Assembly: GCF_018449515.1 (NCBI RefSeq) | Contig: NZ_JAAVUQ010000007.1 | Location: 186,001 to 250,000, forward strand | Reading direction: 5' to 3' | DNA from: Caballeronia sp. dw_19 | Lineage (GTDB): Bacteria > Pseudomonadota > Gammaproteobacteria > Burkholderiales > Burkholderiaceae | DNA length: 64,000 nt | Notes under the pieces: model-generated | The model's input: only the letters and a program-made list of their open reading frames with translations | Databases searched by the model: none | Told to the model about the DNA's origin: nothing | In this document: one piece after another, positions 37,120-55,366 of the stretch | Layout of the letters: each line of letters starts with the position of its first letter | How positions within the stretch are numbered: position 1 is the stretch's first letter | Made by a program: the position numbers and the translations under genes

Positions 37120-37195
37120 GTGGCTGTAGCTCAGTTGGTAGAGTCCAGGATTGTGATTCCTGTTGTCGTGGGTTCGAGCCCCATCAGCCACCCCA
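37120..37195 (+). tRNA. tRNA-His (anticodon GTG), CCA encoded
   Basis: Complete cloverleaf: acceptor GTGGCTG with CAGCCAC, D-arm AGCTCAGTTGGTAGAGT, anticodon loop ATTGTGATT, T-arm GTGGGTTCGAGCCCCAT, discriminator C and encoded CCA. The extra G typical of tRNA-His precedes it at 37119. Its 3' 50 bases form the left attachment site of the mobile element, and the integration leaves the tRNA intact. Confidence 0.98.
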
Positions 37196-37205
37196 AAAGA
37201 TTCAA
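37146..37205. repeat. attL, 60-bp left attachment repeat
   Basis: Identical over 60 bases to 55234-55293. It starts at the anticodon stem of tRNA-His (CAGGATTGTGATTCCTG, itself an inverted repeat) and extends 10 bases past the CCA. The copy here belongs to the functional tRNA. Confidence 0.95.
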
Positions 37206-37211
37206 GCACTT

Positions 37212-37238
37212 AGCCCGACTTCCAAGGTCGGGCTTTTT
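37212..37238 (+). terminator. Terminator just inside the left end of the element
   Basis: AGCCCGAC pairs with GTCGGGCT around a 7-base loop, followed by TTTT. It lies 17 bp after the tRNA and 7 bp past attL, so the element supplies a terminator for tRNA-His in place of the host one displaced to 55367. Confidence 0.85.
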
Positions 37239-37622
37239 GCTTTTAGAATCCATGTAAGTCTGATGTAACAGAAAATGAAGAACGAACCACCCTCACTATG
37301 GCGTGTTGGTTCCCGACCTTCACGGCTGTCATTTGTAGAATGACAGATGAGAGGCAACATGAGGCGGAGCAAGAGAACTCCGCTCGCCTCGTGTTCAAGA
37401 AGGTGCAGCAACGTTTCCGCAAACGCAAAGCGAGTGAGGTAGGTGAATGCAGGCATGTGCTCGCACTAAAGCAACATGGTCTCTTTTCCGCTTGTTTGAA
37501 TATATTAACTAACCAATCTCATCTGCCTCCCTGACGCAAAACGACGAAAGGGAGGCCTTTGAGGTGAGACAGGGTGCGGCATCTGCTCGCCTCAGGTTAA
37601 TTCATCCGTATCGGAAGGTCTG
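37239..37622. other. 384-bp gene-free left end of the element
   Basis: No convincing gene. It holds two perfect inverted repeats: CTGTCATT-N5-AATGACAG (37326-37346) and GCCTCCCT-N16-AGGGAGGC (37525-37556). The latter lies 67 bp past the stop of the minus-strand RRM fusion gene and may end its transcript. The other could be a recombination or regulatory site. Confidence 0.5.
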
Positions 37623-39491
37623 TCAATGTGATTTCCGACGTGTCTTAGCGGTGGAGGAGTCTGCCAACCGAATGCTCACCTTGCGGCCACTGATGACTAT
37701 GCCCTCCAGGTCAATAAGAAGCTGCGCGCTCGTCCTGGTGCCAGCGTCAACGGTGGCAAAGCAAAACCCTTTGTTCCTACTCCCCAATTGTCGCCCCTCT
37801 GGCATATGCAAACTGAGCACACTGCATTTTTTTCCAAGTTCGGCTACGACGGAATCTTTCTCACTTGCATAGCTAAGATTACCAATGAACAGCGTTAGCT
37901 CATTTCGAGCAAATTCGTCGGCGTCGCTAGCAATAATTTCTGCCTTTTCAAACTTGATATTCGCCGCTGGCTTTGAAACAACCTTATAAATAGGCACGGA
38001 GCGCTTCGCCAATTTTTTATCATTGGCGAGTTTATAAGCTTGTGCGTGATTTTTTGTACGAACAACTAGTCCAAGTTGGCGAAGGGGCGTTAGAATTTCC
38101 CGCACCTGGTCTGTATCAACAATACCAAGGCGATCAATAATATCTTGCGTTGAAAACTGGCGATCCTCGTGTCCCAACGCCAAAACAGCGGTCTGACTCT
38201 CGCTCAATTTATACTCGTCAAAGAGTGAGAGCCAAAATTTAACTTTCGGATCGTAAAGCGAGCGATGGAAAAGTGAGACGACAAAATTGTCGCTTACACT
38301 TTGAATGTCAGGCTCTGCTAGTGCATTGCTTCGCATTACATCAAAGATTCGCCGGATTCCTTCGCCCATTTCACGAACGTAGCCGACCTCGCGTAAAACT
38401 CGGGCCACAAGAGGATTTCGGGACTCATGCGCACCCTTTAAAGTCCGAATATCGTCTAGCGATATTGTTGAGAGGAGGCGCCCGGGGCTTTGAATCTCCA
38501 ATCGATCGCTGAATATACTTATCTCGATCCCGCGCCCTTGGATTGCATAGTTTCGATGAACGATCGCGTTAATCAAGGCTTCTCTGCAAGCTATCTGTGG
38601 ATACAAATAACTTTGCTTAAATTTCGCCTTATCCGTTAAAGAGGTATGCATTGTTAGCGCGTAACTAAGGCGCTCCCATGCAGTTTCAACCAAACGAAGA
38701 ACGTTGTCGGCGACAATATCATCCTTAATAACGTTAAAAGCCTCTCCAGAGCGCCGTTCTTTTCCATCGATTGTGAAAATCCGAACAAAACAACCCGGAT
38801 GAAATTTACGCACGTCTTTAGCAAACAGCAACAACGCGGCGACTTTCAGTTTCATTCCAGACGGAGCGAACTCTGCCACACCCAAATGTTGAAGGCATTT
38901 TTCCGGTGTCACGCCATAGGCAATCTGATTTGAAACCTGCTGCAGCAAATCAAAATCGACGTCATCTAATGTGGCGGAATGCTCAATTGCCCGATCCCAC
39001 GTACGGGACTCCATCTCAAGCCGCTCAGAGCGAATGTTCTCTGAGCTTACCGGAATAGACTCAAGGTCCATCCTTTTGAGACACTTGCCGTCTGCCGTCA
39101 AATATGCGTACTCGTTCCCCTTCGAGATCGAAAAATACAGCACCTTGAGGTTGCTGTCCAAATTTACAAGGCTGACCTGTGGTTTGGGAAGGGGAGTATC
39201 GCGATGCACGTGCGTGACATACGCGTTTTTGAGCTGTGTGATTTCCTCGGCGGTGTGCAATAAACCGGTGATAGTTCCGTCGTCCTCGATCCCGATGAAA
39301 AGCTCGCCGCCGTCCGCATTGGCGAAAGCAACCAAAGTCTTGGCAATATCGGCACAAATGTCCTTGACTGAGCGCTTGACCTTCGCGTCAGGAGGACCTT
39401 GGCATGCACTTTTGAATTCCCTATAGTGGCTCTCACCTATTCGCGTTGCAAGTTGCACGCGCTCCGTCAAGACCAAAATCTGTCCGTCCAT
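37623..39491 (-). CDS. AlbA_2 (Schlafen-type) / GHKL-like ATPase / winged helix / C-terminal RRM fusion protein
   Basis: A 622-residue protein. Residues ~15-145 form an AlbA_2/Schlafen domain (GESHYREFKS, then AFANADGGELFIGIEDDG at 54-71). Residues ~285-400 match a HATPase_c_4 module (ACREALINAIVHRNY at 301-315; SDRLEIQSPG at 328-337; MGEGIRRI at 375-382). A winged helix follows (~445-480). Residues 532-611 form an RRM: RNP2 LFIGNL at 534-539 and RNP1 KGFCFATV at 574-581, with a basic tail. AlbA_2-ATPase proteins are common beside type I R-M operons; the RRM is the unusual part and suggests RNA binding. It lies 143 bp downstream of hsdS on the same strand and is lower in GC than its neighbours. 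Role in defence is inferred from place and domains. Confidence 0.85.
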   Translation of the reverse strand: MDGQILVLTERVQLATRIGESHYREFKSACQGPPDAKVKRSVKDICADIAKTLVAFANADGGELFIGIEDDGTITGLLHTAEEITQLKNAYVTHVHRDTPLPKPQVSLVNLDSNLKVLYFSISKGNEYAYLTADGKCLKRMDLESIPVSSENIRSERLEMESRTWDRAIEHSATLDDVDFDLLQQVSNQIAYGVTPEKCLQHLGVAEFAPSGMKLKVAALLLFAKDVRKFHPGCFVRIFTIDGKERRSGEAFNVIKDDIVADNVLRLVETAWERLSYALTMHTSLTDKAKFKQSYLYPQIACREALINAIVHRNYAIQGRGIEISIFSDRLEIQSPGRLLSTISLDDIRTLKGAHESRNPLVARVLREVGYVREMGEGIRRIFDVMRSNALAEPDIQSVSDNFVVSLFHRSLYDPKVKFWLSLFDEYKLSESQTAVLALGHEDRQFSTQDIIDRLGIVDTDQVREILTPLRQLGLVVRTKNHAQAYKLANDKKLAKRSVPIYKVVSKPAANIKFEKAEIIASDADEFARNELTLFIGNLSYASEKDSVVAELGKKCSVLSLHMPEGRQLGSRNKGFCFATVDAGTRTSAQLLIDLEGIVISGRKVSIRLADSSTAKTRRKSH

Positions 39492-39634
39492 CGCATCCCC
39501 CGCTTATTTTTCTACCTGTTCGCTAAACTGCAGCCGCGATCTTATATGAACCGTCACTTGCAATGCGAGCAATAAATCTTGCTCACTGAAAGACCCCTGA
39601 GGACCACCGCACGTTCACCCTGTGGTCCGCTTCA

Positions 39635-41035
39635 CTATTCGATGAACGAATTCTCGGCGTCACTCGGCGTGAATTGACGTGCTCCCTTACTACCTTTGCG
39701 CTTCGTGCCAGCTCTTGATTCCGATTGCTGCCCTGCCAAGCGCTTCAAGAGTTCCGCTGCTGACTCGTCGTTCGGGTCCTGCGGTACGAGCTCGCCACGA
39801 AACGCCTTGGCGAGCAATGCGGGCGTCAACCGTTCCACTGATTTTACTGCGGCGACAAGACGCTTCTCGATTTCATCCGCGAGAGAAAACAACTCACCTA
39901 CCTTTCGAACAATCTTGTTTTGCTCATCAATCGACGGAACAGGAAATAAGAAGTCTCTGCATTGCGATAGCGAGATATTAACTTGCCCTGCCGAACCCCT
40001 CGTTTCGTTAACGATATCTCTGATATTCTCGCCATGGCACAGAAGAATATACAGCCACCCAGTCGTGATTTTTTCGCTCGGTCGAAAGAGGGTGATTGCT
40101 TGGTTTATGTTCCATTCGTCGTACTCGTATGGAACTACCGCCACTTTGCCTAGAGGCGGTCCGACGATGTTCATCAACACGTCACCTGGCAACGCCACAG
40201 ACTTGGCTAGCGGTCCGCGATTCACTTCCGCAGTCACAAATTGTGGGCGGCAATCAAAAGCCACTTGCTGGTCCACGATGTTGTAGACCTTCAGAAAGGG
40301 AATTCCGGACTCGCTAACAAAGCCGCTTTTCGGCGTGCCTCCGCTCTGTACCTTCGCACACACGTCTGCGGCTCGTGCCTTCTTCCAAGTATGTTTGCCG
40401 TCTCCACCACAACTTGTGCAAAGTTGCCCCGACACGGCTGCACTCAAAACGGACTTGCGAAAAAGTCTGAGCTTATCGGAGGCCCGGTCAAGCCGCCCTT
40501 GGCAAGCATCGACGCACGCGAGCATGGTGTCGAGCTTGTCGGCGATGCGCTTTTGCTCGGCTAGGGGTGGCAACGGCACGGTCAACCCAAGCAAGACTGA
40601 TTGATTCAGGTTGACCATCGTTGACCCCACCGAATCGCCAATTAGCTTAGCGACAGTTGCCGGTGACGACAGAAAGCGTTGAAGATAAGTCGAGTCTACG
40701 GACATAGATGGCCTCACGATGACGGAACCTGTGCCGCATACCCATCCAGCAGAAGCATCGGGAACAACAGCACAGCGTCCCATTTCTCCTCGGCGTCCCA
40801 TTACCACGTCGCCAGCAGCGAGCCAGTACTCGCGCAACTTTGAAGCGGTAACCGGCGTTATCGTAACGCTGGGCGCTGGCGACAACTTGCCGTCGCGTAT
40901 GTGAGTGGGATTGATTAACGGGATCTCGCCTGATACGTAGTCTTCCTTGTGAAGTGCTGAGCCAAAAGGTCCAGTCTTTAATGTGGCGACCTCTCCCAAT
41001 GGGGCCATTGTCCAATTCGCTTTGCCGCCACTCAT
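39635..41035 (-). CDS. hsdS: Type I restriction-modification specificity subunit HsdS
   Basis: A 466-residue subunit with two target recognition domains (about 8-155 and 215-370), each followed by a conserved helix: LPPLAEQKRIADKLDTML and VPSIDEQNKIVRKVGELF. The two TRDs differ and would read the two halves of a bipartite target. A Lys/Arg-rich tail ends the protein. Its ATG overlaps the hsdM stop by 4 bp. Confidence 0.95.
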   Translation of the reverse strand: MSGGKANWTMAPLGEVATLKTGPFGSALHKEDYVSGEIPLINPTHIRDGKLSPAPSVTITPVTASKLREYWLAAGDVVMGRRGEMGRCAVVPDASAGWVCGTGSVIVRPSMSVDSTYLQRFLSSPATVAKLIGDSVGSTMVNLNQSVLLGLTVPLPPLAEQKRIADKLDTMLACVDACQGRLDRASDKLRLFRKSVLSAAVSGQLCTSCGGDGKHTWKKARAADVCAKVQSGGTPKSGFVSESGIPFLKVYNIVDQQVAFDCRPQFVTAEVNRGPLAKSVALPGDVLMNIVGPPLGKVAVVPYEYDEWNINQAITLFRPSEKITTGWLYILLCHGENIRDIVNETRGSAGQVNISLSQCRDFLFPVPSIDEQNKIVRKVGELFSLADEIEKRLVAAVKSVERLTPALLAKAFRGELVPQDPNDESAAELLKRLAGQQSESRAGTKRKGSKGARQFTPSDAENSFIE

Positions 41036-42489
41036 TCGAAATCCCCCTGCTCAAGAGACAACAGGACGGCGGTCATTTCGCCCAACGCACCATTTAACTC
41101 GTCCATCACCTCGCGAGCCAACACATCTGGCTCAGGTAGGTCAGTCGCATCTTCAGCGCTTTCATCTTTCAGCCACGAGATATCAAGGCTATCGCCTCGG
41201 GCCTTGACCCACTTACGGCTGAATGTACGGAATCGGCCAATCTCACCCTGATCGACTCGTTTACTAGTTCCTTCTGCTGCTTCACCGTAGGCCGTCTCGA
41301 ATTCGGCGAAGTATTCGCGCAACAGCGGCGTGCGTTTACCAAACTTCGGCGCGTTGGCGCGCAGGTCATACACCCATACCTGCTTCGTGCTATCGGTCGC
41401 AGCTTGGCTTACCTTCGTGAAGAACAGAACGTTCGTTTTAACGCCTTGCGCGTAGAAGATGCCCGTAGGAAGACGCAAGATTGTGTGCAGGTTGCATTTG
41501 TTCATTAGGTCGCGGCGAATGTCCGCGCCGACGCCTGCTTCAAACAGCACGTTGTCAGGCAACACTACAGCGGCACGCCCGCCATCCTTCAAATGTCGAA
41601 CGATGTGCTGCACGAAAGCGAGCTGCTTGTTGCTGGTCGCATACGTTAGGTCGTCACGAGTCGGACCACCACCGCCCTTCGCCGTACCGAACGGCGGATT
41701 GCTGAGAATGATGTTTGCTCTAGGCAAGGCCGCGCCAGCATTGCCCAGCGTATTGCCGATATGCACAACTCCTTCATCATCACCTTCCATGCCGTGCAAC
41801 ATGCAATTCATCAACGCGAGCCGCCTTGTGCTCGACACCAACTCCATGCCGAGAAACGCCTTGTTCCGCTGGAAGGTTTGCTGTTTGGCGTTGAGATTGT
41901 AGAGGTTGTCTGTGTGCGACTTGATATAAGCATCCGCTGCGATTAGGAAGCCCGCCGTACCTGCTGCCGGGTCCTGAATCGTCTCGCCATGTTGCGGCTT
42001 GATGAGGTGAATGATGCTATCGATCAAGGGGCGCGGCGTGAAGTATTGCCCGGCACCTGACTTCGTTTCGCTGGCGTTCTTTTGCAACAAACCTTCGTAT
42101 AAGTCGCCTAGCCCATCCCTCTTCGCCGAGAACCAGTCGATACCATCGAGGTTCTTTACAAGTTGCTCAAGGTGGCGCGGCTCTTTTAGGCTTGTTTGGG
42201 CGTCAGCATAGATCGCAGCGATTAGGGGATCGGTGCTTTGGCTCAGCGACAATAACGTTGCCCGATAATGGTTCAACAGATTTAAGCCGCTCTTATCAGT
42301 CAGGTCCGTCCAGCGCGAGCCTTCAGGCAACTTGTGCTTACTGAGCACACCACTTTGGGCGTTTTCGTGCTCCATCTTGATGAACAGTAGCAAGACCAGC
42401 TCGGCCACATACTCCGAGTAGTTGATGCCATCGTCGCGCAGCACGTCGCAAAGGTTCCACAGCTTCTGGACGATTTCGTTATTGCTCAT
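41032..42489 (-). CDS. hsdM: Type I restriction-modification DNA methyltransferase HsdM
   Basis: A 485-residue adenine-N6 methyltransferase. The N-terminal helical domain (1-~125) is followed by GAGQYFTPRPLI (145-156), the SAM-binding DPAAGTAGF (173-181) and the catalytic NPPF (264-267). It modifies host DNA and is also needed with HsdS for cutting by HsdR. It follows hsdR by 76 bp and overlaps hsdS. Confidence 0.96.
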   Translation of the reverse strand: MSNNEIVQKLWNLCDVLRDDGINYSEYVAELVLLLFIKMEHENAQSGVLSKHKLPEGSRWTDLTDKSGLNLLNHYRATLLSLSQSTDPLIAAIYADAQTSLKEPRHLEQLVKNLDGIDWFSAKRDGLGDLYEGLLQKNASETKSGAGQYFTPRPLIDSIIHLIKPQHGETIQDPAAGTAGFLIAADAYIKSHTDNLYNLNAKQQTFQRNKAFLGMELVSSTRRLALMNCMLHGMEGDDEGVVHIGNTLGNAGAALPRANIILSNPPFGTAKGGGGPTRDDLTYATSNKQLAFVQHIVRHLKDGGRAAVVLPDNVLFEAGVGADIRRDLMNKCNLHTILRLPTGIFYAQGVKTNVLFFTKVSQAATDSTKQVWVYDLRANAPKFGKRTPLLREYFAEFETAYGEAAEGTSKRVDQGEIGRFRTFSRKWVKARGDSLDISWLKDESAEDATDLPEPDVLAREVMDELNGALGEMTAVLLSLEQGDFE

Positions 42490-42565
42490 GGGGCCTGATT
42501 CTGAATGGGTTGGCAGGCCGTAAATCGGGGAAATCCGTGACGGCCTGCGAAGATTTTGGACTAAA

Positions 42566-45500
42566 TTATGCCACCTGCGGCCACAATGTCCCCGCGAGTT
42601 CTTGAAGCACCGTATCCAGCTTGCCGCCTAGCATCTTGTTGAGCTGCTTCGCGCCGCCATCATTAGCGAATGTGCTGTTTACGAACTGCTGATCGACGAC
42701 AACCTCGTGAGCGAGTTGCTTGGCTAACCGGCCCAGCCATGTACGCTGCACCTGTGTCCAGTTCGTAAGCTTATAGATGCCATCCATGGCATGAGCAACA
42801 CGCTGATCGAATGAAATGAGAGCCTCGCCAAGCGCTGCCTGCCGGATATAGCCTACGATGCTCGCGGCGATCTCTTGGTTGGTCTGCTGCCGCCAAGCGC
42901 TCTTGATTCGCGCCTCCGTAAAGCCATGCTGATCGAGCAGCATGCGGACTTCTTTCAGCTCTGCACGCGTCAAGTCCTTCGGGCGATTCACGACAACCGA
43001 CAACGCAGCCGACTGGTTGATTTGCTCGCGGATGAAGTGGTTGAAGCCATCAAGGTAATCTTTCGGGCGTCCGTAATCGCCGTAACTCTGCTCACGAGAC
43101 AGCAGCTCGTCCGCGTGTTCGGAGATGATCGGCATGTTGCCCGTGCCCACCAGTTGCTTCACCTCGGCGAGCTGTTCCAAGAGATGCATGTGCTCGCGCA
43201 CGAAGTCTGCTGCGCCCGCTGGACCTAACGAATGCAGGTGCTCGTGGAGCTTGCTCGGCGGCACACCCCAGGTTTGCTCAAGTTGTGCAAGGCGTTCCGT
43301 TAGTGCTGGCTTTTTCAACGCTTCGTGTGTCGCCTTCCGGAGCACACGCATCAGGCCTTGACTCAGGGCATCAAGGACCTCGTGAGCGTGCGTGCGATCA
43401 GACGCGCTACCCGGCGCATCGAAGCTAGCGGGGTCAGTAAGCTCGCCGATCAACTGCTCCATCGTGACGTTCGGGTCCTTCACCAGCGGCTTCATGGTCG
43501 ATACGTCCTGAAGCGCGGCGTAGATGTCCACCGGGTCATAAATCTTGAAGACAGTCTTGCCAATCTCGTCGCATCGGCGGGTCGCACGCCCGATCATCTG
43601 CTCGTAGAGAATACGGGAGCGCACGCGGCGTAGGAACACGAGATGGGAGATGGTTGGCACATCGATACCAGTCGTGAGCAGGTCAACCGTGATGGCGATG
43701 CTGGGATACAGCTCGTTCTTGTAAAGGCGAATGAGCTGGTTGACTTTGTCCGACTGCCCCGTAATCTTCTTGACGGCAGCCTCGTTGTAGAGGTCGCCAT
43801 ATTCCTCTTTGAAGGCTTCGTTGAGAAGGCGCTTAACCATCTCAGCATGCATATCGGTCGCGCAGAAGATGAGGGTCTTCTCTTTGCCGAACGGGTCCAA
43901 CTCCTTCGCCAGTTGAGCGCAAATCACCTTATTGAACTGTTCGCTAATAACACTCTTGTTGAAGGCTTCGACGCTGAAATTAACCTCGTCCTCTAGCTCC
44001 GACAGTTCTATCTCGCCCGTCGATGTGTTGATCGCCGTAACCGTCTCGCCCTTCTGGAAGTGGATGCCGTTTTTCGAAAGAAGAGTTTCGTATCGAACCG
44101 GCGGCTCGTGGTCGATCAGCCAGTCGTCGGCGACGGCCTCACGGTATGAATACGTGTAGACGGGCTTGCCGAAAATCTCTGTCGTATGCTTCGCGGGCGT
44201 GGCAGTGAGCGCGACCTTTACCGCGTCGAAGTAATCGAGCACCCGTCGATAGCTGGAGAGGTACTGACCTTGATCCCGTACAACTAGCTCGCCTTCGGTC
44301 ATCTCTTGATCAAGCGTGTAGCCACGATGCGCTTCATCAATAATGATGCAATCGAACTCGTCAACGCCGGGTGGCGTATCGGACTGGAGGATGCGCCGCA
44401 CCATCGCCTGAACCGTTGCGACCTGAACGCGCGTCTCGGCCTCGGCGGACATATCCCCTAGCTTCGCGATGTTGTAAATCTTCGAAAGCGGCTGATTCTG
44501 CTCAAGCAATGCTTCGTCGAACGTGTCCGTTGCCTGTTGCCCCAGCGCGGTGCGATCCACGAGGAAGAGTATTCGGCGGAATCGCTCCGCCTTCAGCATC
44601 CGATACATGAGGCCAATGATCGTTCGGGTCTTGCCCGTCCCTGTCGCCATCGCAACGAGGGCCTCGCGCTGGCCGCCAGCGAGCGCCAGCTCTACGGCTT
44701 GAATGGCCTTCACTTGGTAGTCACGAAGCTTCAGATAGTCGAAGCCTTCCTCCGCGAGCTTTGCTTCGGCGTCTTCCTTGCTCCGTTTCAGCCGATCTAC
44801 TAGGCCATCCGGTTGATGGAAACCTGCTAGCGGATTGGAGAGATTCGAGGGTGCACGCACATCACGGAACCATGTGCCGCTTTGCTCCGCCAGTTGCTTG
44901 ATGTAGGGGCGGCTGTTGCACGAGTACACGAACGGGACTTTAAATGAGCCGTTTTGCCCATCCGACCATGGCCCCGACTGCCCTGCCACTTGCCACGGTG
45001 CGATCAGGTCCGGCGTGAGCTTGAATCCACGCGAGTAACGCTCCGCCTGTTGGATCGTGTCTGCCACGCCCTTGCTTTGCTTCTTCGCCTCAACAATGGC
45101 AATGGGCATCATGCCTGCGAATAGCATGTAGTCGGCAGTACCGTCTAGAGTCGGCCATTCGGAGATGGCTTTATTCTTTCCCGGCTCCGGGCGTACGCCC
45201 TTTGCATATTTCAGCTCCACCGTATCTGCATCCCATCCCGCTTCCATCAACTGCTTGTCGATGAGAATGCGCGTCAAGTCCTCGGACCACACGAGTTGCT
45301 TTGTAGCCTTCTGCGTGCTGACCTTAGCCTGAGTTACCTGCTTTGCGTCGAGCTGGTCCTGAAGCGCTTTCAGTTGGGTATCGAAAGCTTGCTGCGCTTT
45401 TTTCAGCGCTGCTTCCTGCTCGAATGCTAGATCCTTGTACGTCTTCGCTTCTACGTCCATCTGCAACGCGAGCGTCTCGTACTCCTCCTTCTCTTGCGCT

Positions 45501-46030
45501 ATGAGGTCGGCAAGTTGCTGGCTGCTTTCGAGCGTCTGCGAGGCGCTCTTTAGTTGCGCCTTGAGCACGTCAATCTCAACCTGGAGATCGCGCAGGGCTT
45601 TGCTGGGGTCTTCTGGTGGAACAAACGCACCGGGTTTGAACGCCGTACCCTGCTTGCCGAACGACTGCTCAAACCAAATCGCGAGGGCGCGGGCGACTTT
45701 CAGGCCGTCCATCGCCTCTTTGTGCTGCGTCTTAAACTCGTGGGTGGCCTTATTGCCTTCAACGCGAAGCGTATGGAACAGACCACGGATCGCTTTGTCG
45801 AGGCCAGCCTCCCGATCCAACCGGAAAAGCAGGTCCGCCTGCGTGGTTGTCTGGTCGAATTCGACGCCCAAGCGCGAGGCCAAGTCCTGCGCCATCGCCT
45901 CGCCAAACTGGCGAAGCTTGATGAGAGTCGTATTCGGGTCGCTGGCGAAGATTTTTTCGGCGGCAGTGCCGAGCTGTGCGAGAAGCGGCGAATGCTCGGC
46001 TAGAAAGCTGAAATTCCCAGTCTGGCTCAC
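42566..46030 (-). CDS. hsdR: Type I restriction endonuclease subunit HsdR
   Basis: A 1154-residue motor-nuclease. The N-terminal ~140 residues look like a DUF4145-type domain, then a coiled coil (~145-240). The PD-(D/E)xK nuclease shows Asp300 and Glu314-x-Lys316 (IVEAKKQ). The SF2 translocase has Walker A ATGTGKT (462-468), DEAH (565-568) and LTATP; a long helical C-terminus binds the methylase. It starts with GTG at 46030. It appears intact and full-length for an EcoKI-type HsdR. First gene of the R-M operon. Confidence 0.95.
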   Translation of the reverse strand: MSQTGNFSFLAEHSPLLAQLGTAAEKIFASDPNTTLIKLRQFGEAMAQDLASRLGVEFDQTTTQADLLFRLDREAGLDKAIRGLFHTLRVEGNKATHEFKTQHKEAMDGLKVARALAIWFEQSFGKQGTAFKPGAFVPPEDPSKALRDLQVEIDVLKAQLKSASQTLESSQQLADLIAQEKEEYETLALQMDVEAKTYKDLAFEQEAALKKAQQAFDTQLKALQDQLDAKQVTQAKVSTQKATKQLVWSEDLTRILIDKQLMEAGWDADTVELKYAKGVRPEPGKNKAISEWPTLDGTADYMLFAGMMPIAIVEAKKQSKGVADTIQQAERYSRGFKLTPDLIAPWQVAGQSGPWSDGQNGSFKVPFVYSCNSRPYIKQLAEQSGTWFRDVRAPSNLSNPLAGFHQPDGLVDRLKRSKEDAEAKLAEEGFDYLKLRDYQVKAIQAVELALAGGQREALVAMATGTGKTRTIIGLMYRMLKAERFRRILFLVDRTALGQQATDTFDEALLEQNQPLSKIYNIAKLGDMSAEAETRVQVATVQAMVRRILQSDTPPGVDEFDCIIIDEAHRGYTLDQEMTEGELVVRDQGQYLSSYRRVLDYFDAVKVALTATPAKHTTEIFGKPVYTYSYREAVADDWLIDHEPPVRYETLLSKNGIHFQKGETVTAINTSTGEIELSELEDEVNFSVEAFNKSVISEQFNKVICAQLAKELDPFGKEKTLIFCATDMHAEMVKRLLNEAFKEEYGDLYNEAAVKKITGQSDKVNQLIRLYKNELYPSIAITVDLLTTGIDVPTISHLVFLRRVRSRILYEQMIGRATRRCDEIGKTVFKIYDPVDIYAALQDVSTMKPLVKDPNVTMEQLIGELTDPASFDAPGSASDRTHAHEVLDALSQGLMRVLRKATHEALKKPALTERLAQLEQTWGVPPSKLHEHLHSLGPAGAADFVREHMHLLEQLAEVKQLVGTGNMPIISEHADELLSREQSYGDYGRPKDYLDGFNHFIREQINQSAALSVVVNRPKDLTRAELKEVRMLLDQHGFTEARIKSAWRQQTNQEIAASIVGYIRQAALGEALISFDQRVAHAMDGIYKLTNWTQVQRTWLGRLAKQLAHEVVVDQQFVNSTFANDGGAKQLNKMLGGKLDTVLQELAGTLWPQVA

Positions 46031-46038
46031 GGTCTATG

Positions 46039-46073
46039 GTCCGTCGTTATTGTCTGACGGACTTTACTGTAAA
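46039..46073 (-). promoter_or_regulatory. Candidate hsdR promoter with operator over the -10 box
   Basis: On the minus strand TTTACA (46073-46068) and AATAAC (46051-46046) are spaced by 16 bp. The -10 lies in the loop of a perfect inverted repeat GTCCGTC-N10-GACGGAC (46039-46062). A protein bound there would block the promoter. The XRE regulator encoded upstream is a plausible binder. Confidence 0.45.
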
Positions 46074-46281
46074 CGGGGCGCAGGCGGGAATTCGCCGAGC
46101 ATCCGATTGTGGTTCAGACGCCAAAGATGCCGCGCGCTACGATTGCATACGCCATCCCGTTACCGCGTAGCCGGATTACCTGCATCGCGAATCAGCAATG
46201 GCCTGCGACGTGAGCGCAACAAATTCGAGATTCCTCGGCAGTCTGTTCGTCTTTCTTACAGAACCGAAAGGCTGCGCCGCG

Positions 46282-47070
46282 TCAATCACCGTCCTCGCGT
46301 AATACCTCGCGGGCATGTGCTCGGGGTTTGTGCCGCTCATACATGGCGTCGATTTCGGGTAGGCGTCCGGCTTGCACTCCATCCACATAGTCGTTGAAGA
46401 CGGCGAAAGCCGCGCGCACACGGTGAAGGGGCGCGCTGACGCGAGTAAGGGCGGCAATCGCGGCGGCAACCGGCGCGCCGCCCGGCAGGTCATCGAATTG
46501 ACCGCGCTCGCACAGGTCACGGAACCGCCGCTCGATGGATTCGACCGCCGCTATCACATCTGCCGTCTCGTCGGGCGTGAGTTGCATACGACTAGCAACC
46601 TCCGCCGATATCCGGGCGAAGCCCGTCATGGTCGCTTCGAGCGCGCTTCGCGTCCCGCGCAGCAAAGCATGCCGCCGCAAAACTTCGGCGTCGCGGTCCA
46701 TGTCAGGCACAAGTCCGAGAAGCCAATCGACCGACACTGAGTACACCCGCGCGGCCTGCGCGACAAACTTGAAATCTTTTGGTATCGGGCGCTCGCCGGA
46801 CTCGATTAAGGAAAGTTGCGTGCTGTTGGCGTATCCGAACAATTGCGCGGCTTCGACCGCGAGCAGGCCATTGGCTACGCGGGCCTGAATGAGTCTGTAT
46901 CGCAAGTCTTCCAGTTCGGCGGGCGCAGTGAAGCTGCGCTTGAATCGCGTGAGCACCTTTTCAACGAGAGGGCCGCCCTCATCCACGGGTTCACGCTTCG
47001 CGGGCACGACACGCTCTTTGGTCAGGTCAACAACTTTAAAGCCAGCGCGCGGCACGTGGTAATCACTCAT
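46282..47070 (-). CDS. XRE-type helix-turn-helix regulator with long C-terminal domain
   Basis: A 262-residue protein. Residues ~50-115 contain a Cro/CI-like HTH (LRYRLIQARVANGLLAVEAAQLFGYANSTQLSLIESGERPIPKD ... YSVSVDWLLGL). The remaining ~145 residues are helical without a recognised family. Position at the end of the early-type gene block, directly before the R-M operon, suggests it controls element genes or hsdR. Its stop lies 251 bp before the hsdR start. Confidence 0.8.
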   Translation of the reverse strand: MSDYHVPRAGFKVVDLTKERVVPAKREPVDEGGPLVEKVLTRFKRSFTAPAELEDLRYRLIQARVANGLLAVEAAQLFGYANSTQLSLIESGERPIPKDFKFVAQAARVYSVSVDWLLGLVPDMDRDAEVLRRHALLRGTRSALEATMTGFARISAEVASRMQLTPDETADVIAAVESIERRFRDLCERGQFDDLPGGAPVAAAIAALTRVSAPLHRVRAAFAVFNDYVDGVQAGRLPEIDAMYERHKPRAHAREVLREDGD

Positions 47071-47315
47071 TTTTTTCTCCCAGCAAGCAATACGCGTGCG
47101 ACGTTTTCAAGGCGGGCAGCGACACGTTCAAGGCGCTCGGACTGCGTCGGTTTGGCGGCGGTGCGAGGTGTATCTCTCCAGCGTTCGACCGACGAGCGGT
47201 GATGAATCGCGCTCGGCGAAACACCGTAGCGTTTTGCAAGCTGCTTGGCGGTCGAGCCCGCGCGATACTCGGCTTCGATTTGAAACCACGCTTCGGGCGA
47301 TAGTCGGATTGCCAT
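47067..47315 (-). CDS. Small HTH protein, terminase small subunit-like N-terminus
   Basis: An 82-residue basic protein with a homeodomain-like HTH: EAWFQIEAEYRAGSTAKQLAKRYGVSPSAIHHRS. This resembles the DNA-binding head of some phage terminase small subunits and resolvase-type HTHs, but no terminase large subunit follows. Its stop overlaps the start of the XRE gene by 4 bp. Confidence 0.65.
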   Translation of the reverse strand: MAIRLSPEAWFQIEAEYRAGSTAKQLAKRYGVSPSAIHHRSSVERWRDTPRTAAKPTQSERLERVAARLENVARVLLAGRKK

Positions 47316-47333
47316 GCGGTTCCCCTGCGGTGG

Positions 47334-47951
47334 TCAGAGGCCGAACGACGACGAAATGTCGCCACCCAGTACCACTGGGTCGAAGAAGGGCGCGGTCCGT
47401 ACAAACGCGTTGATTCGCTCAAGGCGCGCTCGCTTGTCGTCAATCGCGGCCTGCCACTCTTCGAGGTCTGAACGCGTCGGAACCGGCTCGACGGCGTCGA
47501 TAGTTCGCTGGTCGAGTCCAGCGTCCGCGAGCTTTACGCGATAGTCATCGCGCGCCTTATCGAAACCGCGAACGTGTTTTTCGAGTTCGACAATCGTGCC
47601 CGGTAGCTCCAAGCGCTCGCTGAGAATTCTCGGCAACGCGTGGGCGACGGACGCCCGCGCAGCCTTCGCAGCCGCTTCAAGGGCTTCGTTGTCGGCGAAC
47701 GCTTCCTCGACCTGTTGCTGAAGCTCGACGGCGGTCTCGTTCAGCAGCGTGGCGGGCGATGCGCCATCGCACTGCGCGCGCACTACCGCGTCGAGAATCA
47801 GCCCGAGCCGCTCAACCCTCGCGAGCGTGGCGTGAGCGGTCTTCACGCGGACCACCGCAGCCCGAACGGCAGGGTCCGCGAGCGCGCGAAGGAAGTCGCC
47901 CTTGAGCGTCATGTCCGCATCGGCGGCAAGAGTGGCAGCAATCATGTTCAT
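47334..47951 (-). CDS. Unknown helical protein of the element
   Basis: A 205-residue, Ala/Arg/Glu-rich protein predicted by eye to be nearly all helix, probably coiled coil (for example LNETAVELQQQVEEAFADNEALEAAAKAARA). No family recognised. It precedes the HTH gene by 18 bp and belongs to the same minus-strand block. Confidence 0.65.
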   Translation of the reverse strand: MNMIAATLAADADMTLKGDFLRALADPAVRAAVVRVKTAHATLARVERLGLILDAVVRAQCDGASPATLLNETAVELQQQVEEAFADNEALEAAAKAARASVAHALPRILSERLELPGTIVELEKHVRGFDKARDDYRVKLADAGLDQRTIDAVEPVPTRSDLEEWQAAIDDKRARLERINAFVRTAPFFDPVVLGGDISSSFGL

Positions 47952-48376
47952 AGTGGAAAGCCTTCGATTGTGTTGGAGAAGGCTTCAATGCTCGCACCCG
48001 GCACGCGTGATACGGCGGGGCGTTTTCCAACGATTGCAAGCAAAACGGCAAACCGATGTTGTTGCGCCCGACGGGCCGAACGTGGCACGCGCACGCACGC
48101 GCTCCGTGTCGGAAAATTCGGCCCTTCGATTCGCACTGAATCGCCCAATAGCCTCACCGCACAAGGCTTTCGCGGGATTTTCATGAGCATTAAAAATGTG
48201 CTCGTATCAAGCCGTTCGCCGGATGAATTCGGGCAGCGTGCACGCGGATTGGCTGCGACCATTTGTATTTTGGGCGACAAGCTCGCGGGCGCTTCGTAGG
48301 CGTAGAATTAGTTATCCCCGCAGCCCGCCAACGAGCGGGCTTTTGCACATTCAGAATCCGAAACGCGAGGTGCGAT
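47952..48376. other. 425-bp intergenic region inside the element
   Basis: It lies between a minus-strand gene and the only plus-strand gene of the element, so it should hold divergent promoters. No gene is supported; the plus-strand open frame crossing it mostly mirrors the helical-protein gene. A terminator-type hairpin lies at 48322-48344. Confidence 0.45.
48322..48344 (+). terminator. Hairpin before the CxCxxC gene
   Basis: AGCCCGC pairs with GCGGGCT around a 6-base loop, followed by TTTT. Located 32 bp upstream of the plus-strand gene at 48377, so it could also be a leader hairpin or attenuator. Confidence 0.5.
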
Positions 48377-48592
48377 ATGGCAAGCAGAGCGAGGCGGCGC
48401 GCGGACCGGGCGCGACTCCGGCACAAGCGAGCGAAATGGTGGGGCCGGTATCTTGTCGATGCGACTGAGCGCGGCAAGGTCATCGACACGCCAACGCCGT
48501 GCAGTTGCCCGATGTGCGGCAACCCCCGGCAATACTCCGGTGAGCGCACGGTTGGCGAGCGACGCTGGTTTCAGCAAGTCGAAGACGAGTGA
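48377..48592 (+). CDS. Small Cys-rich protein (CSCPMCGNPR motif)
   Basis: A 71-residue basic protein. The N-terminus is Arg-rich (MASRARRRADRARLRHKRAKWWGR), followed by CSCPMCGNPRQYSGERTVGERRW. It resembles a family of small phage and mobile-element proteins with a half zinc knuckle and the CGNPR motif; function unknown. GAGG precedes the ATG. It is the only plus-strand gene in the element and overlaps the 3' end of the convergent gene by 22 bp. Confidence 0.65.
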   Translation: MASRARRRADRARLRHKRAKWWGRYLVDATERGKVIDTPTPCSCPMCGNPRQYSGERTVGERRWFQQVEDE

Positions 48593-48885
48593 GCGCACCA
48601 ACGCCGAACTGCGCGTGCCATTGCCCATTGCGCCACCCGGTGCCATCGGTCCACGAGCCGGGCCGTGAACTGCGGCGAGAGTTGCGCGACGATCACATAG
48701 CTATCGCGCTCGCCGAACCGTGCGCGCGCGGTGAGAATGGCGTCGTCGCGCTGCGCCGCGTGGGATTCGAAGATTTCTTGGGCACGTTCTTCGGAAAGCG
48801 GTTTCAACCCGAGCTTCTCGCAAATGGCGCGCATTTGGGCGACGCGCTTCGCGAACCTCGGCGTCATTTTGCGATGGTCAGTCAT
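48571..48885 (-). CDS. Unknown small protein of the element
   Basis: A 104-residue basic, helical protein (MTDHRKMTPRFAKRVAQMRAI...). No family recognised. The ATG at 48885 was chosen because it overlaps the stop of the preceding gene by 8 bases, a coupled arrangement; the longer frame upstream lies out of frame with that gene. Confidence 0.55.
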   Translation of the reverse strand: MTDHRKMTPRFAKRVAQMRAICEKLGLKPLSEERAQEIFESHAAQRDDAILTARARFGERDSYVIVAQLSPQFTARLVDRWHRVAQWAMARAVRRWCAHSSSTC

Positions 48886-49093
48886 GTGGCCCGCCGTCGA
48901 TGAGCTTCCGCGCGGCGGTGCGAACATCGTGATTGGCGGCAAGGCACTTTGCCACATCGGCAGGCTTGCCGGTCGGTGCGTCGCGGTGTGCCCGCGTGCG
49001 CTGCTCGACGGCATGCAAGACGGCCCGCGCATGCCGAAGGCGGCGTAGGTCTGCCGCCATTCCGGGCGGCGGTTTGCGGTTGTTCTCTTTCAT
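48878..49093 (-). CDS. Unknown small protein of the element
   Basis: A 71-residue basic, His/Arg-rich protein. AGGA lies 8 bases before the ATG, and the next gene starts inside its last codons, which supports both. No family recognised. It follows the element DnaB gene by about 160 bp. Confidence 0.5.
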   Translation of the reverse strand: MKENNRKPPPGMAADLRRLRHARAVLHAVEQRTRAHRDAPTGKPADVAKCLAANHDVRTAARKLIDGGPHD

Positions 49094-49252
49094 CGTTTTT
49101 CCTAATATAGTTAGTTATCCTAATTCAGTGAATCACCTAGCTGCGTTTAAACGGCCTGTACCGGCCTCGCCGCGACCCGGATGACGTTCGCGTATTGCCG
49201 GGGTGTCACAAAGCCAGCAGCGAGCCGATTTATGGCCTTGCCGCGCCGCCGT

Positions 49253-50620: not shown

Positions 50621-50778
50621 GCCGCCTCCGCGTCGTGAAAGCGGCCTTCACGAATTTTTGCGAAATTTTCTGCCTTGCAAATCCAGTCCAGCCCCGGTGT
50701 AAACGGTTTGCGGTCTCCCGAAGTGGCCTTGCCGGTCAGAAACGGCGACGCGGAAATGTAGGTGAAAAACCGCCTCCA

Positions 50779-51525
50779 CTATTCGATGCTCTGGCGCTTC
50801 CCGTCTTCGTTCCAACGGGCGCGAAGGTGCGCCGCGCGAGCGGGCGTCCAGTCGCGAATAGCCGGGCTGGCAGGCAAAAGTTCGTGGTACACCGCGATGA
50901 TTTCCTGATGCGGGCAGTCCGGTTTCTTCGCTTTCGGTTTCTCCGTGGAATGGTCGTCGGCATCGCTGACGACAACCAACACGTCAGTGTTGGTTATAGG
51001 TTCTTCCTCTCCCTTCGACTCCCCTCGACTCCCTTCCGTAAGCGAACAGTCCCCGAACGCTCCGCTAACGTTCGCCGGTTGTTCGTCTAGTGCTCGGCGA
51101 ACATCTGACGAACACTCATCCAAAGTTGCTTCGATGGGCGGTGCCGGAATGTTGACCATACGGTTCGCGCGGCGCTTTGCGGCAGCAGCCGGAACAGACC
51201 CGTCAGGGCGCGGATGCTTGAACGTCGGTTGGTCGATTTTTTGGTGATGCCAGCCAGTCACCTGCCAATACGATTCGTTGTCGATGGCATATTCCGTCAG
51301 CAAACCGACGCGCTCCAGTTCGGCAATCAGTCCACGAACGTCTGAAACCGAAACGTCGTCAGCCGGGAAAACCTCAGCCTTCAGGCGCTTCTCGCTCGCC
51401 GGATGAATGCCAGCGTCATCGCAAAAATTCCACAGGCCGATGAACAGCAGTCGGGCCGGAATCGACAGGTCCATAACTTGCGCCGAGGTCCAAAACTCAG
51501 GTTTGATTGAGCGAATACGCGCCAT
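50779..51525 (-). CDS. Phage-type replication protein with winged helix
   Basis: A 248-residue protein. The N-terminus MARIRSIKPEFWTSAQVMDLSIPARLLFIGLWNFCDDAG is typical of phage proteins that precede DnaB or DnaC helicase genes and act in origin recognition or helicase loading. The middle is Ser/Glu/Asp-rich and disordered; the C-terminus contains a short Pro-Trp-Arg block (IRDWTPARAAHLRARWNEDG). The ATG at 51525 is preceded closely by the stop of the upstream gene; a longer open frame upstream duplicates that gene in another frame and was rejected. Confidence 0.8.
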   Translation of the reverse strand: MARIRSIKPEFWTSAQVMDLSIPARLLFIGLWNFCDDAGIHPASEKRLKAEVFPADDVSVSDVRGLIAELERVGLLTEYAIDNESYWQVTGWHHQKIDQPTFKHPRPDGSVPAAAAKRRANRMVNIPAPPIEATLDECSSDVRRALDEQPANVSGAFGDCSLTEGSRGESKGEEEPITNTDVLVVVSDADDHSTEKPKAKKPDCPHQEIIAVYHELLPASPAIRDWTPARAAHLRARWNEDGKRQSIE

Positions 51526-51526
51526 T

Positions 51527-51988
51527 TCAGACCTTCTGCAAAAGGCCAAGCAAGCCCGTGCACACCGCATGTGCAATGGCCCGCTTGGCATCCGGGCTAG
51601 GCGCGAAGTGAATCGAATTGGCAATTTCGTGCACAAGCGCGAAATCGACCGGCAGCGTGGCTTCGGGAGCCTTGCTGGGCTCATTGTGTGCGCACAGCGG
51701 GCAGTTGCGCACGGCAGTTTCGAGGCGGCGCAGCGCGTTGCGCTCGGCGGCGCGGGCCTTTTGAAGGGCGGCGTATGCCTTGCGCGTCGCGCGGTGAAAG
51801 GCGGGGTCGTCAATGTCGATGCGGTCAAGGAAGTGGCGCATCCGAAAGCGGGAGCAGCTAGCCTTGTATTTTTCACCGACAGCGAGGCGATCCGCTTTCA
51901 AGCGGAAAAACTCTTTGGCACGTTGCGCGACCAGTTCGACGGTCCACGCCGGGCGCGCGGCGGCATTCGGGATTTTTTTTGCGGCCAT
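51527..51988 (-). CDS. Unknown basic protein of the element
   Basis: A 153-residue Ala/Arg-rich, helical protein containing a single NCPLCAHNE motif (about residue 94), possibly half of a zinc site. No family recognised. Its start overlaps the stop of the HTH gene (TAATG) and its stop is one base from the next ATG, so it belongs to the replication operon. Confidence 0.65.
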   Translation of the reverse strand: MAAKKIPNAAARPAWTVELVAQRAKEFFRLKADRLAVGEKYKASCSRFRMRHFLDRIDIDDPAFHRATRKAYAALQKARAAERNALRRLETAVRNCPLCAHNEPSKAPEATLPVDFALVHEIANSIHFAPSPDAKRAIAHAVCTGLLGLLQKV

Positions 51989-52200
51989 TATTTCGCGCCC
52001 CCTTCAAGGAGAGCATGAAGGTCAGACACGCGCCATGCCAAGCGGCCATTGATACGGACAGGGCGGATGGGGCCGTTTTCGAGGCACGCCCATTTGCGCA
52101 GCGTTTGCGGCTTGCGATTGATTGCGGCGGCGGCTTCGTCCGTAGGCAGGACTTCGGGAAGGGAAGCGCGGTTCAGCAGGTTTTGAAGGTTCATTGTCAA
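51988..52200 (-). CDS. Small HTH DNA-binding protein (AlpA/excisionase-like)
   Basis: A 70-residue protein with a MerR/AlpA-like winged HTH: LPTDEAAAAINRKPQTLRKWACLENGPIRPVRINGRLAWRVSDLHALL. Proteins of this size act as excisionases or as activators of integrase and replication genes in prophages and P4-type elements. MTMNLQ or MNLQ may be the true start. First gene of a tight three-gene run with 51527 and 50779. Confidence 0.78.
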   Translation of the reverse strand: MTMNLQNLLNRASLPEVLPTDEAAAAINRKPQTLRKWACLENGPIRPVRINGRLAWRVSDLHALLEGGAK

Positions 52201-53158: not shown

Positions 53159-53250
53159 AGCGCCCCCGCGCTCCCTCGTAAAGGACCCGGGCCAGTGCGG
53201 CAGGGTTTCCGCACGTTTCGGGAGCTACCCTAGGCCCGGCAAACCGGCTA

Positions 53251-53708: not shown

Positions 53709-55061
53709 TTAAACCGGGTTTTCTTGGTCTGGCACGAACTCAACACCAGCCTGTTCGAGTACCCAACCTTCAATCTTGTCGTGCCACATACGCAATAAGT
53801 CAATCGGACGTATTTTGTAATGACGCTCGGCTGTTGCGGATGGCCGGTGACCCATGACTTGCGCGACCACGCCGGTAGGAACCTCCACCCATTCACTTAG
53901 CGATGAGAACGACCGGCGCAGGCCGTGCGGAGTCACAGGCGCGATTCCCGCCGCTTCGCAGACGCGATGCAAAGCACGATTTGGCGCGGCCAGCCTCCCT
54001 TCAGCAGCGCTGGAGCTTGAAAATACCCACTGAGACGGCTTCCACGTTTTTCCATCGCTTTCAAGCTTTCTGAGTTGCCGCACGCTGGGCGGCGTTTCGT
54101 TGAGCCGCTTCAATTCCAGCAACCTCGAATGCAGGTATGGGGTCAGGGGGATTACGCGGCCAGCCTCCTTTTCAACCTTGTCAGCAAGGTGCAGGGCGCG
54201 CCAACGAAAATCCACGTCATCCCATCGAAGCCCCGCCAGTTCTTCCCGACGTGCGCCAGTGAGCAGCAGGCCGATCAGGTATGTTTCCATGGTTGGATTG
54301 TCGAGTTGATTGACGGCGTTGAACCAGCCGCGCAATTGCTCGCGCTGAATCACGTCGGTCTTAGCGGCGCTTGTTGGGAGCGCGTCTTTGGAAATTCGGG
54401 TCGATATCGCCTGCGGATCAACTAACCCGCGATACTCGGGTTTGGATTCGAGCCATGACGCAAAGATGCGCAGTAGATTAAAGGCGAGGCGGGCACGGGC
54501 CGGGCGTTTCGCGGCTTCGCTTTCGAGCCAGTCGCTTATCAGATCCGCATTGAGGTCAGCCATCTTCAGCCGCATGAGCGCTGCAAGTGGCCCCGGCTCA
54601 GTCAGGCCCTTGCCGCGCCGCTTCGCCGCGCCGCCAAGGCTCGAAAGGTCTACGTGATCCCTGTAGTGGAGCACACTCCACTTTGGGCGGCGTGCTTCGA
54701 GATAGATGGCCCATGCTTCGCTGATAGTCGCAGTTTGACGGCGCGCTTCTAACTTACGGGCCTCATGGGCGGCGCGTTGCTCGGCCCTTTGTTCGCGCGG
54801 GTCAATTCCACCATTGACGAGGGTTTGCAGGCGACGCGCCTCATCCTGCGCCGCGTCAATACCCCAGCTTTTCACGTCGCCGATTGTCAGGCGCAGGGTC
54901 CTGTCATGAATCGTGCCTTGGAAAATATAAGACTTAGCTCCGCTTGCCGTCGCACGCAGGCCTAATCCGGGCGATTTTGCGTCCCAAAAGAACGCTTGTG
55001 ACTTGCCCGCCGGGCAGGCGAACTCTTCGACTCGGCGCGCAGTGAAATTAATTTTTGCCAC
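53709..55061 (-). CDS. int: Tyrosine recombinase (integrase) of the element
   Basis: A 450-residue phage-type integrase. N-terminal DUF4102-like arm-binding segment (INFTARRVEEFACPAGKSQAFFWDAKSPGLGLR), core-binding domain (~110-225), and catalytic domain with Arg271 (TGARREELAGLRW), His379-x-x-Arg382 (HGLRR), His405 (GHRP) and the nucleophile Tyr415 (RHYKI). All catalytic residues are present, so the element may still be mobile. The start lies 172 bp inside attR; integrases adjacent to the att site usually act on it. Confidence 0.95.
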   Translation of the reverse strand: MAKINFTARRVEEFACPAGKSQAFFWDAKSPGLGLRATASGAKSYIFQGTIHDRTLRLTIGDVKSWGIDAAQDEARRLQTLVNGGIDPREQRAEQRAAHEARKLEARRQTATISEAWAIYLEARRPKWSVLHYRDHVDLSSLGGAAKRRGKGLTEPGPLAALMRLKMADLNADLISDWLESEAAKRPARARLAFNLLRIFASWLESKPEYRGLVDPQAISTRISKDALPTSAAKTDVIQREQLRGWFNAVNQLDNPTMETYLIGLLLTGARREELAGLRWDDVDFRWRALHLADKVEKEAGRVIPLTPYLHSRLLELKRLNETPPSVRQLRKLESDGKTWKPSQWVFSSSSAAEGRLAAPNRALHRVCEAAGIAPVTPHGLRRSFSSLSEWVEVPTGVVAQVMGHRPSATAERHYKIRPIDLLRMWHDKIEGWVLEQAGVEFVPDQENPV

Positions 55062-55233: not shown

Positions 55234-55293
55234 CAGGATTGTGATTCCTGTTGTCGTGGGTTCGAGCCCCATCAGCCACCCCAAAAGATTCAA
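55234..55293. repeat. attR, 60-bp right attachment repeat
   Basis: Perfect copy of 37146-37205: the displaced 3' half of tRNA-His (from the anticodon stem) plus 10 bases beyond the CCA. There is no 5' tRNA half here, so it is not a tRNA gene. Confidence 0.95.
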
Positions 55294-55366
55294 TGACTTA
55301 GCGGGTTTTTCGGCTGCTCAGTTACAGGTTTTGGAAGATGAAGTTCCAATCTCTGGAAGGTGATTT

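What the first reader, a model, noticed from the sequence alone, without database searches (positions are those of the whole stretch)
37623..39491. Schlafen-type AlbA_2 ATPase fused to a C-terminal RNA recognition motif, in a type I R-M locus
Seen: AlbA_2 and HATPase-like motifs, a winged helix, then RNP2 (534-539) and RNP1 (574-581) at the correct 40-residue spacing of an RRM. Known: AlbA_2-ATPase proteins often accompany type I R-M operons, and bacterial RRMs are mostly free-standing ~90-residue proteins. Inference: the RRM lets this defence-associated protein sense or hold RNA (phage transcript, cleaved tRNA), giving a second layer behind HsdRMS. I do not know of a described system with this architecture.
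Basis: partly seen in the sequence, partly recalled or inferred. Interest (0 to 1): 0.88.

Follow-up and report, generated by a model that had tools for sequence, protein, structure and literature searches.

The report
Mobile bacterial Schlafen protein with RRM
A bacterial relative of the antiviral Schlafen RNA-cutting enzymes, carried on mobile DNA, has a second RNA-binding module joined to its tail, and the same joined form turns up across several groups of bacteria, which suggests an RNA-reading immune enzyme whose function has yet to be tested.

Summary
The 622-aa ORF (37623-39491, minus strand) is a Schlafen AlbA_2 domain, a GHKL (HATPase_c_4) ATPase, a winged helix, a disordered linker and a C-terminal RRM, with RNP2 at 534-539 and RNP1 at 574-581 as reported. 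The window's RRM alone is weak for Pfam (15 bits, cut-off 20.7). It is confirmed by homologues (RRM_1 in 11 of 13, best E 2e-21), by a profile without the window or L001 (31.9 bits; [quoted passage not shown] Twelve of 14 members of a supported clade keep the RRM; two lack it.

All 13 aligned members keep three acidic residues that correspond to the Schlafen13 RNase site (one by alignment, two by spacing only). The RRM diverges fast (30% mean identity against 58%) but keeps its RNP aromatics.

The type I R-M link is not conserved. The gene is cargo of an integrase-bearing, phage-satellite-like island at tRNA-His; some relatives sit beside other defence genes, on prophages or on a conjugative transposon. 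Best reading: a mobile anti-phage Schlafen RNase whose RRM selects the trigger or target RNA (function inferred). It is a new variant of the known Schlafen-GHKL-wHTH architecture.

The parts
37623..39491 (-). slfn-rrm gene, 622 aa: AlbA_2 / GHKL / wHTH / linker / RRM
39051..39434 (-). SLFN_AlbA_2 domain (residues 20-147); candidate RNase acidic residues E20, E25, D70
   Evidence: Pfam E 3e-17; E20, E25 and D70 invariant in 13 of 13; profile match to SLFN12/11/13/14/5 chains over residues 38-101
38271..38537 (-). HATPase_c_4 / GHKL ATPase domain (residues 319-407)
   Evidence: Pfam E 5.5e-24; E304, N308, D329, G337, G376, G378 invariant in 13 of 13; Foldseek also hits pyruvate dehydrogenase kinases with ADP
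38058..38249 (-). winged-helix region (about residues 415-478)
   Evidence: weak HTH_27, below its cut-off; helices and short strands in the model
37905..37970 (-). flexible linker (residues 508-529, pLDDT about 30)
   Evidence: 23% mean identity with 21% gaps over 486-530
37656..37901 (-). RRM domain (residues 531-612)
37875..37892 (-). RNP2 (534-539, LFIGNL)
37749..37772 (-). RNP1 (574-581, KGFCFATV)
39635..41035 (-). hsdS, 143 bp upstream of the slfn-rrm start
41032..42489 (-). hsdM
42566..46030 (-). hsdR
37120..37195 (+). tRNA-His, presumed integration target
37146..37214 (+). left 69-nt direct repeat (3' part of tRNA-His)
55234..55302 (+). right 69-nt direct repeat (97% identical)
53709..55061 (-). 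tyrosine integrase of the island
   Evidence: Pfam, PHROGs
53173..53240 (-). int-alpA RNA (RF02996)
   Evidence: Rfam above gathering score
49253..50620 (-). phage-type DnaB replicative helicase of the island
50779..51876 (-). phage-type replication initiation protein of the island (true start probably further in)
   Evidence: PHROGs E 4.9e-35 from residue 118

Best explanation
A Schlafen-family anti-phage effector carried as cargo of mobile elements. Shown: an AlbA_2 domain with candidate Schlafen acidic residues kept, a GHKL ATPase and winged helix, and an RRM on a disordered tether, conserved as a fusion in a clade that spans Pseudomonadota, Bacteroidota and Acidobacteriota and that moves horizontally. 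Inferred: the AlbA_2 domain is an endoribonuclease that is kept off by the GHKL/wHTH module; on infection the RRM captures an RNA (phage transcript, or tRNA/rRNA as substrate), the ATPase changes conformation, and the Schlafen site cuts RNA needed for translation, stopping phage growth. The RRM is the fast-changing specificity part. The neighbouring hsdRMS is a separate defence system on the same island, not an obligate partner.
For: Domains. Nuclease: E20 is E in 19, E25 is E in 16 and D in 3, and D70 is D in 19 of 19 aligned proteins, RRM-less outgroups included. D70 falls on the second D of the SLFN13 chain's DDE in the profile alignment; since residue 249 of SLFN13 is a glutamate in the paper's mutant list, I take that D as D248 of the published E205/E210/D248 active site (PMC5862951, passages). 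RRM competence: F/Y/W at RNP2-2 in 12 of 13 tails, RNP1-3 in 13 of 13, RNP1-5 in 12 of 13, K/R at RNP1-1 in 12 of 13, while overall RRM identity is 30% against 58% in AlbA_2. Mobility: integrase, 69-nt direct repeats, int-alpA RNA and phage-type replication genes in the window island; low GC3 of the gene, 0.51 against 0.74 for dus; a hit in 2 of 58 genus genomes, own included; two genomes that share the groEL site, with flanking proteins 86-97% identical, carry SLFN-RRMs only 51% alike. Defence neighbours in at least 5 of 13 loci: type I R-M (window; L033), DUF4297-HerA (L003), AbiJ/Abi_C (L002), HNH restriction-type nuclease (L022). Literature: Schlafen RNase + minimal histidine kinase + wHTH as BREX-linked effectors, said to act by tRNA cleavage (PMC12839542, passages).
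Against: No activity, RNA binding or phage phenotype is shown for any member. PMC6299218 (passages) calls bacterial AlbA_2 a DNA-binding domain. The profile alignment to SLFN13 begins at residue 38, so E20/E25 are matched by spacing only (5 apart in both; 45 against 38 residues from the second E to the D). Two of 14 clade members lack the RRM (L007, L034), so it is not indispensable. L008 has a degenerate RNP1, and two tail columns outside the RNP motifs are about as aromatic (12 and 11 of 13), so the aromatic count alone does not prove RNA binding. The full-model match to 3LMM has TM-scores of only 0.35-0.45, so domain packing is uncertain. Eight of 13 loci showed no defence gene in what I examined; ORFs were read by eye and only selected ones scanned.
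Confidence: 0.5

Rival explanations
1. Regulator: the AlbA_2 and wHTH domains bind DNA and the RRM binds RNA, so the protein controls transcription or translation of the mobile element (or represses itself) rather than cutting RNA.
For: AlbA_2 is described as DNA-binding in pAgo work (PMC6299218 passages); wHTH-like region present; the RRM protein RbpB is a post-transcriptional regulator in Bacteroides (PMC11697453 passages).
Against: Schlafen-type acidic residues kept in 19 of 19; the gene occurs with unrelated elements and, in L006 and L032, at one chromosomal site, which does not suit an element-specific regulator.
Confidence: 0.22
2. Guard of the restriction system: it works with HsdRMS and fires when a phage blocks the type I enzyme (as PrrC is said to do with EcoprrI; recalled).
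For: Same strand, 143 bp downstream of hsdS; another type I R-M lies near L033.
Against: No hit of the window's hsd proteins at E<=0.01 in 14 other fetched loci; a hairpin-like repeat lies between hsdS and the gene (by eye); codon GC3 differs (0.51 against 0.58-0.70).
Confidence: 0.08
3. The RRM is a protein-protein or ribosome-docking module, or a decaying remnant, and does not select RNA.
For: RRM absent in 2 of 14; low identity (30%); L008 RNP1 degenerate; window RRM sub-threshold for Pfam; RRMs that bind proteins are known (recalled; several PDB hits are RRMs in protein complexes).
Against: RNP aromatics and the basic residue kept in 12-13 of 13 tails; fold retained in the model.
Confidence: 0.2

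Closest known systems
Bacterial Schlafen RNase + minimal histidine kinase + wHTH effectors (BREX/BR-associated; PMC12839542, passages)
   Same: Same AlbA_2-GHKL-wHTH core order; carried near defence loci
   Different: No RRM mentioned in the Schlafen passages read; that paper's RRM-fold tails are on DUF499 ATPases, a different protein
DIP2311 of Corynebacterium diphtheriae (PDB 3LMM)
   Same: Best structural match, about 470 alignment columns, E 3e-22
   Different: Sequence match covers residues 296-472 only; TM 0.35-0.45 and rmsd about 17 A, so domain packing differs or is mispredicted; function not given there
Vertebrate SLFN11/12/13/14 N-terminal RNase domain
   Same: AlbA_2 fold and acidic site
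   Different: No GHKL-wHTH-RRM tail (recalled for the vertebrate proteins)
Free-standing bacterial RRM proteins (RbpB of Bacteroides; NCBIfam Rbp_regulator)
   Same: RRM with RNP1/RNP2; Rbp_regulator is the best NCBIfam match of the tail, far below its cut-off
   Different: There the RRM protein is small and separate (recalled); here it is the tail of a Schlafen-ATPase

Membership tests
Schlafen/AlbA_2 (PF04326) | Pfam match above gathering score | tested here: met
   63.7 bits against 25.3; 13 of 13 members match at E<=0.01
Schlafen RNase | Three-carboxylate active site (SLFN13 E205, E210, D248) | tested here: inconclusive
   D70 by alignment, E20/E25 by spacing; invariant in 13 of 13
Schlafen RNase | Endoribonuclease activity | not testable with these tools
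   needs an assay
GHKL / HATPase_c_4 ATPase | Pfam match and conserved ATP-site residues | tested here: met
   84.4 bits against 26; E304, N308, D329, G337, G376, G378 invariant in 13 of 13; assignment of these to the N, G1 and G2 boxes is recalled
RRM (PF00076) | Pfam gathering score in the window protein itself | tested here: not met
   15.0 bits against 20.7
[quoted passage not shown]
RRM | RNA binding | not testable with these tools
   only residue conservation
Type I R-M component or fixed accessory | Conserved linkage to hsdRMS | tested here: not met
   0 of 14 other loci by tblastn with window hsd proteins at E<=0.01; L033 has other hsd genes
Known anti-phage system in PADLOC-DB 2.0.0 | Full-length match to a listed defence protein | tested here: not met
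   only partial matches: residues 21-410 to a pAgo model (28-437 of 1121) and shorter stretches to two Aga models
Bacterial Schlafen anti-phage defence | Phage protection | not testable with these tools
   preprint cited in PMC12839542, not held

The most novel reading that the evidence does not exclude
A separate class of RNA-sensing Schlafen immune enzymes: a tethered, fast-evolving RRM reads phage or damaged host RNA and, through the GHKL switch, licenses the Schlafen nuclease, so that bacteria have an RNA-recognition-gated Schlafen immune sensor that spreads on satellites, prophages and conjugative elements.
Probability: 0.35. Interest if true: 0.82.

Novelty: new variant of a known kind. 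Interest (0 to 1): 0.62.

Why it matters
If the RRM chooses the trigger or target RNA, this is a handle on an open question about bacterial Schlafens: what switches them on and what they cut. A swap, deletion or RNP change of one small tethered domain would test it directly, and CLIP on the RRM would name the RNA. RRM-fold tails have been proposed as recognisers on DUF499 ATPases of BREX-related systems (PMC12839542, passages); this would be a second, unrelated use of an RRM in bacterial defence, on a candidate RNase.

Tried and rejected
Rejected: chance RRM-like motif (shuffle and homologue tests). Rejected: conserved R-M accessory. Rejected: frameshift or false fusion; it is one ORF and the fusion recurs. 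Tested and negative: plasmid records with P0001 at E<=1e-40 gave no match, and with L006 at E<=1e-30 gave 3 partial matches that cover 56-73%. Phage records with P0001 gave 12 partial matches within residues 39-397, and with L022 none. The first viral-contig scan found no relative; the second, with an alignment, gave 7 loci, two of them of this clade. No shared DNA element in 500 bp upstream (12 loci) or downstream (10 loci; L021 and L022 end there) apart from the L006/L032 common site and one 37-nt match. Rfam on the window island found a tRNA and int-alpA only. Empty site not shown: right of the right repeat, 16 of the 19 other genus genomes with a match match only within the first 60 bases, the repeat itself.

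Limits: the genome-contig scan used exact peptide patterns and found 8 relatives, so prevalence is not measured. Genomes with a hit, centre included: 1 of 274, 1 of 300 and 3 of 395 (two without RRM) at E<=1e-60; 3 of 296 and 2 of 295 at 1e-80; 2 of 58 at 1e-30; 2 of 151 (one without RRM) and 1 of 150 at 1e-60 with the alignment. L021 and L022 came from a viral collection, so their mobile context is by selection. L022 and L035/L046 encode the same protein and are counted once. L031 (interrupted gene) is not in the tree or in the counts of 13 and 14, but its tail is one of the 13 tails. Neighbours of L034 were not read.

Full report
1. What is there. The ORF 37623-39491 (minus strand, 622 aa) is intact. 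Pfam finds SLFN_AlbA_2 at 20-147 and HATPase_c_4 at 319-407, both well above threshold, and a weak winged helix. The C-terminal tail carries RNP2 at 534-539 and RNP1 at 574-581. On its own the tail is a weak RRM (15.0 bits, cut-off 20.7). Relatives settle the matter: a scan of 13 full-length members finds AlbA_2 and HATPase_c_4 in 13 of 13 and RRM_1 in 11 of 13, best E 2.3e-21. The two without a match are the window protein and, since it has no tail, L007 (its ORF ends after the linker). A profile of the other tails without window and L001 scores the window tail 31.9 bits against at most 7.9 for 2000 shuffles. The linker at 508-529 is predicted disordered.

2. Who else has it. A pattern scan of the collection of 84,980 species genomes gave 8 relatives. 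Seven carry the RRM: L001 Rhodocyclaceae, L002 Pedobacter, L003 Bacteroidia bin, L004 Bacteroides, L005 Cytophagales, L006 Chryseobacterium, L008 Acidobacteria. L007 (Saprospiraceae) does not. Viral contigs added L021 and L022, both with RRM. Genome samples added L032 and L033 with RRM, L031 (interrupted by a stop, RRM in its downstream piece) and L034 without RRM. A tree of 19 core sequences puts the window with L001 (100/100). It unites 14 members (12 with RRM, 2 without) at 98/97 apart from RRM-less outgroups; one gain and two losses would explain the three changes, but rooting is by midpoint and some long branches meet. The RRM is thus a mostly kept part of this clade, not an accident of one genome.

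3. What the domains say. Mean pairwise identity among the 12 RRM members is 58% in AlbA_2, 58% in the ATPase, 41% in the wHTH, 23% in the linker and 30% in the RRM. In the RRM the RNP aromatics are kept: F/Y/W in 12 of 13 tails at RNP2-2, 13 of 13 at RNP1-3, 12 of 13 at RNP1-5; these are three of the four most aromatic of 85 columns, but two other columns reach 12 and 11. That pattern suits a domain that still binds RNA but changes what it binds. E20, E25 (D in three outgroups) and D70 are conserved in 19 of 19 proteins. In the profile alignment to the SLFN13 chain D70 falls on the aspartate directly before a glutamate; the paper's mutant list has E249, so I take D70 as D248. The two glutamates match by spacing only. 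RNase activity is therefore an inference.

4. Where it lives. In the window the gene closes an island that starts at tRNA-His: a 69-nt direct repeat (37146-37214 and 55234-55302, 97%), a tyrosine integrase, an int-alpA RNA, an excisionase-like protein, a phage replication initiator, DnaB helicase and a repressor-like protein. Among ten island proteins scanned with PHROGs none is a capsid or tail protein, apart from a small protein with a terminase-small-subunit-like match. It looks like a phage-satellite-like element with hsdRMS and slfn-rrm as cargo (inference). The gene is the least host-like of those measured (GC3 0.51; hsdS 0.58, hsdR 0.70, dus 0.74). In the genus, 2 of 58 genomes have a hit, own included; the other is a different SLFN-RRM at 47% identity beside prophage genes. 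The left flank (dus and tRNA-His) is present in 21 of 21 sampled, own included.

5. Neighbourhoods elsewhere. DUF4297-HerA directly upstream of L003 and an integrase further on; Abi_C/AbiJ downstream of L002; type I hsdM/hsdS, a PADLOC candidate (PDC-S05) and two integrases near L033; an HNH restriction-type nuclease, D12 methylase, lysozyme-type hydrolase and baseplate hub near L022; a CTnDOT-type conjugative transposon with ArdA and integrase around L004; an inovirus-type gene (Zot family) beside L021. So at least 5 of 13 loci have a defence neighbour and at least 6 of 13 an integrase, prophage or conjugation gene. L006 and L032 share one site downstream of groEL, with flanking proteins 86-97% identical, yet their SLFN-RRMs are 51% identical, whereas L006 is 77% identical to L003 and 73% to L004: replacement by horizontal transfer. 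Near L001, L005, L006, L007, L008 and L032 I noticed no defence gene in ORFs read by eye; L001 has a transposase-like ORF at 4676-5542 and L006 one at 10380-11225 (by eye; the latter has no Pfam match). Only selected neighbours were scanned with profiles.

6. Mechanism. Best supported: Schlafen RNase effector, GHKL/wHTH switch, RRM as RNA selector on a tether. Domains, conservation and mobility are shown; nuclease activity, RNA binding, activation and phage defence are inferred. The closest printed system, Schlafen RNase + minimal histidine kinase + wHTH beside BREX and related systems (PMC12839542, passages), has the same core and is said to cleave tRNAs; one of the three references given there is a preprint that I could not read. 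The RRM-bearing version did not appear in the listings of eight paper searches, which cover only open PMC papers and would miss preprints and supplements.

7. Verdict. Observation confirmed, interpretation partly supported, R-M link not conserved. New variant of a known kind; interest 0.62.

Noticed in passing
window 37196-55302: About 18-kb integrative element at tRNA-His with integrase, int-alpA RNA, excisionase-like, replication initiator, DnaB helicase and repressor-like genes: phage-satellite-like, with hsdRMS and slfn-rrm as cargo.
   Followed up: partly
window 55303-57200: The DNA right of the right repeat is also poorly conserved in the genus sample, so a second island or a composite site may follow.
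   Followed up: no
L006 8001-9860 and L032 8319-10124: The same chromosomal site downstream of groEL holds SLFN-RRM genes only 51% identical in two related genomes: a replacement hotspot.
   Followed up: partly
L022 7992-10043: This member has a longer linker (136 against 37-74 residues) with an extra segment between wHTH and RRM that matched no Pfam family at E<=0.01.
   Followed up: no
L046 5950-8229: A 759-aa protein that reads by eye like a GHKL-type ATPase with a nuclease-like C-terminus lies on the other strand beside the L022-type gene; no PADLOC match at E<=1e-4.
   Followed up: partly
L048 577-2850: RRM-less relative whose tail looks by eye like a repeated winged-helix-type segment with proline-rich repeats: other C-terminal modules may occur on the same core.
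   Followed up: no
window protein residues 21-410: Matches a PADLOC pAgo model (E 9.6e-25), in line with Schlafen domains fused to some long pAgos (PMC6299218 passages).
   Followed up: partly
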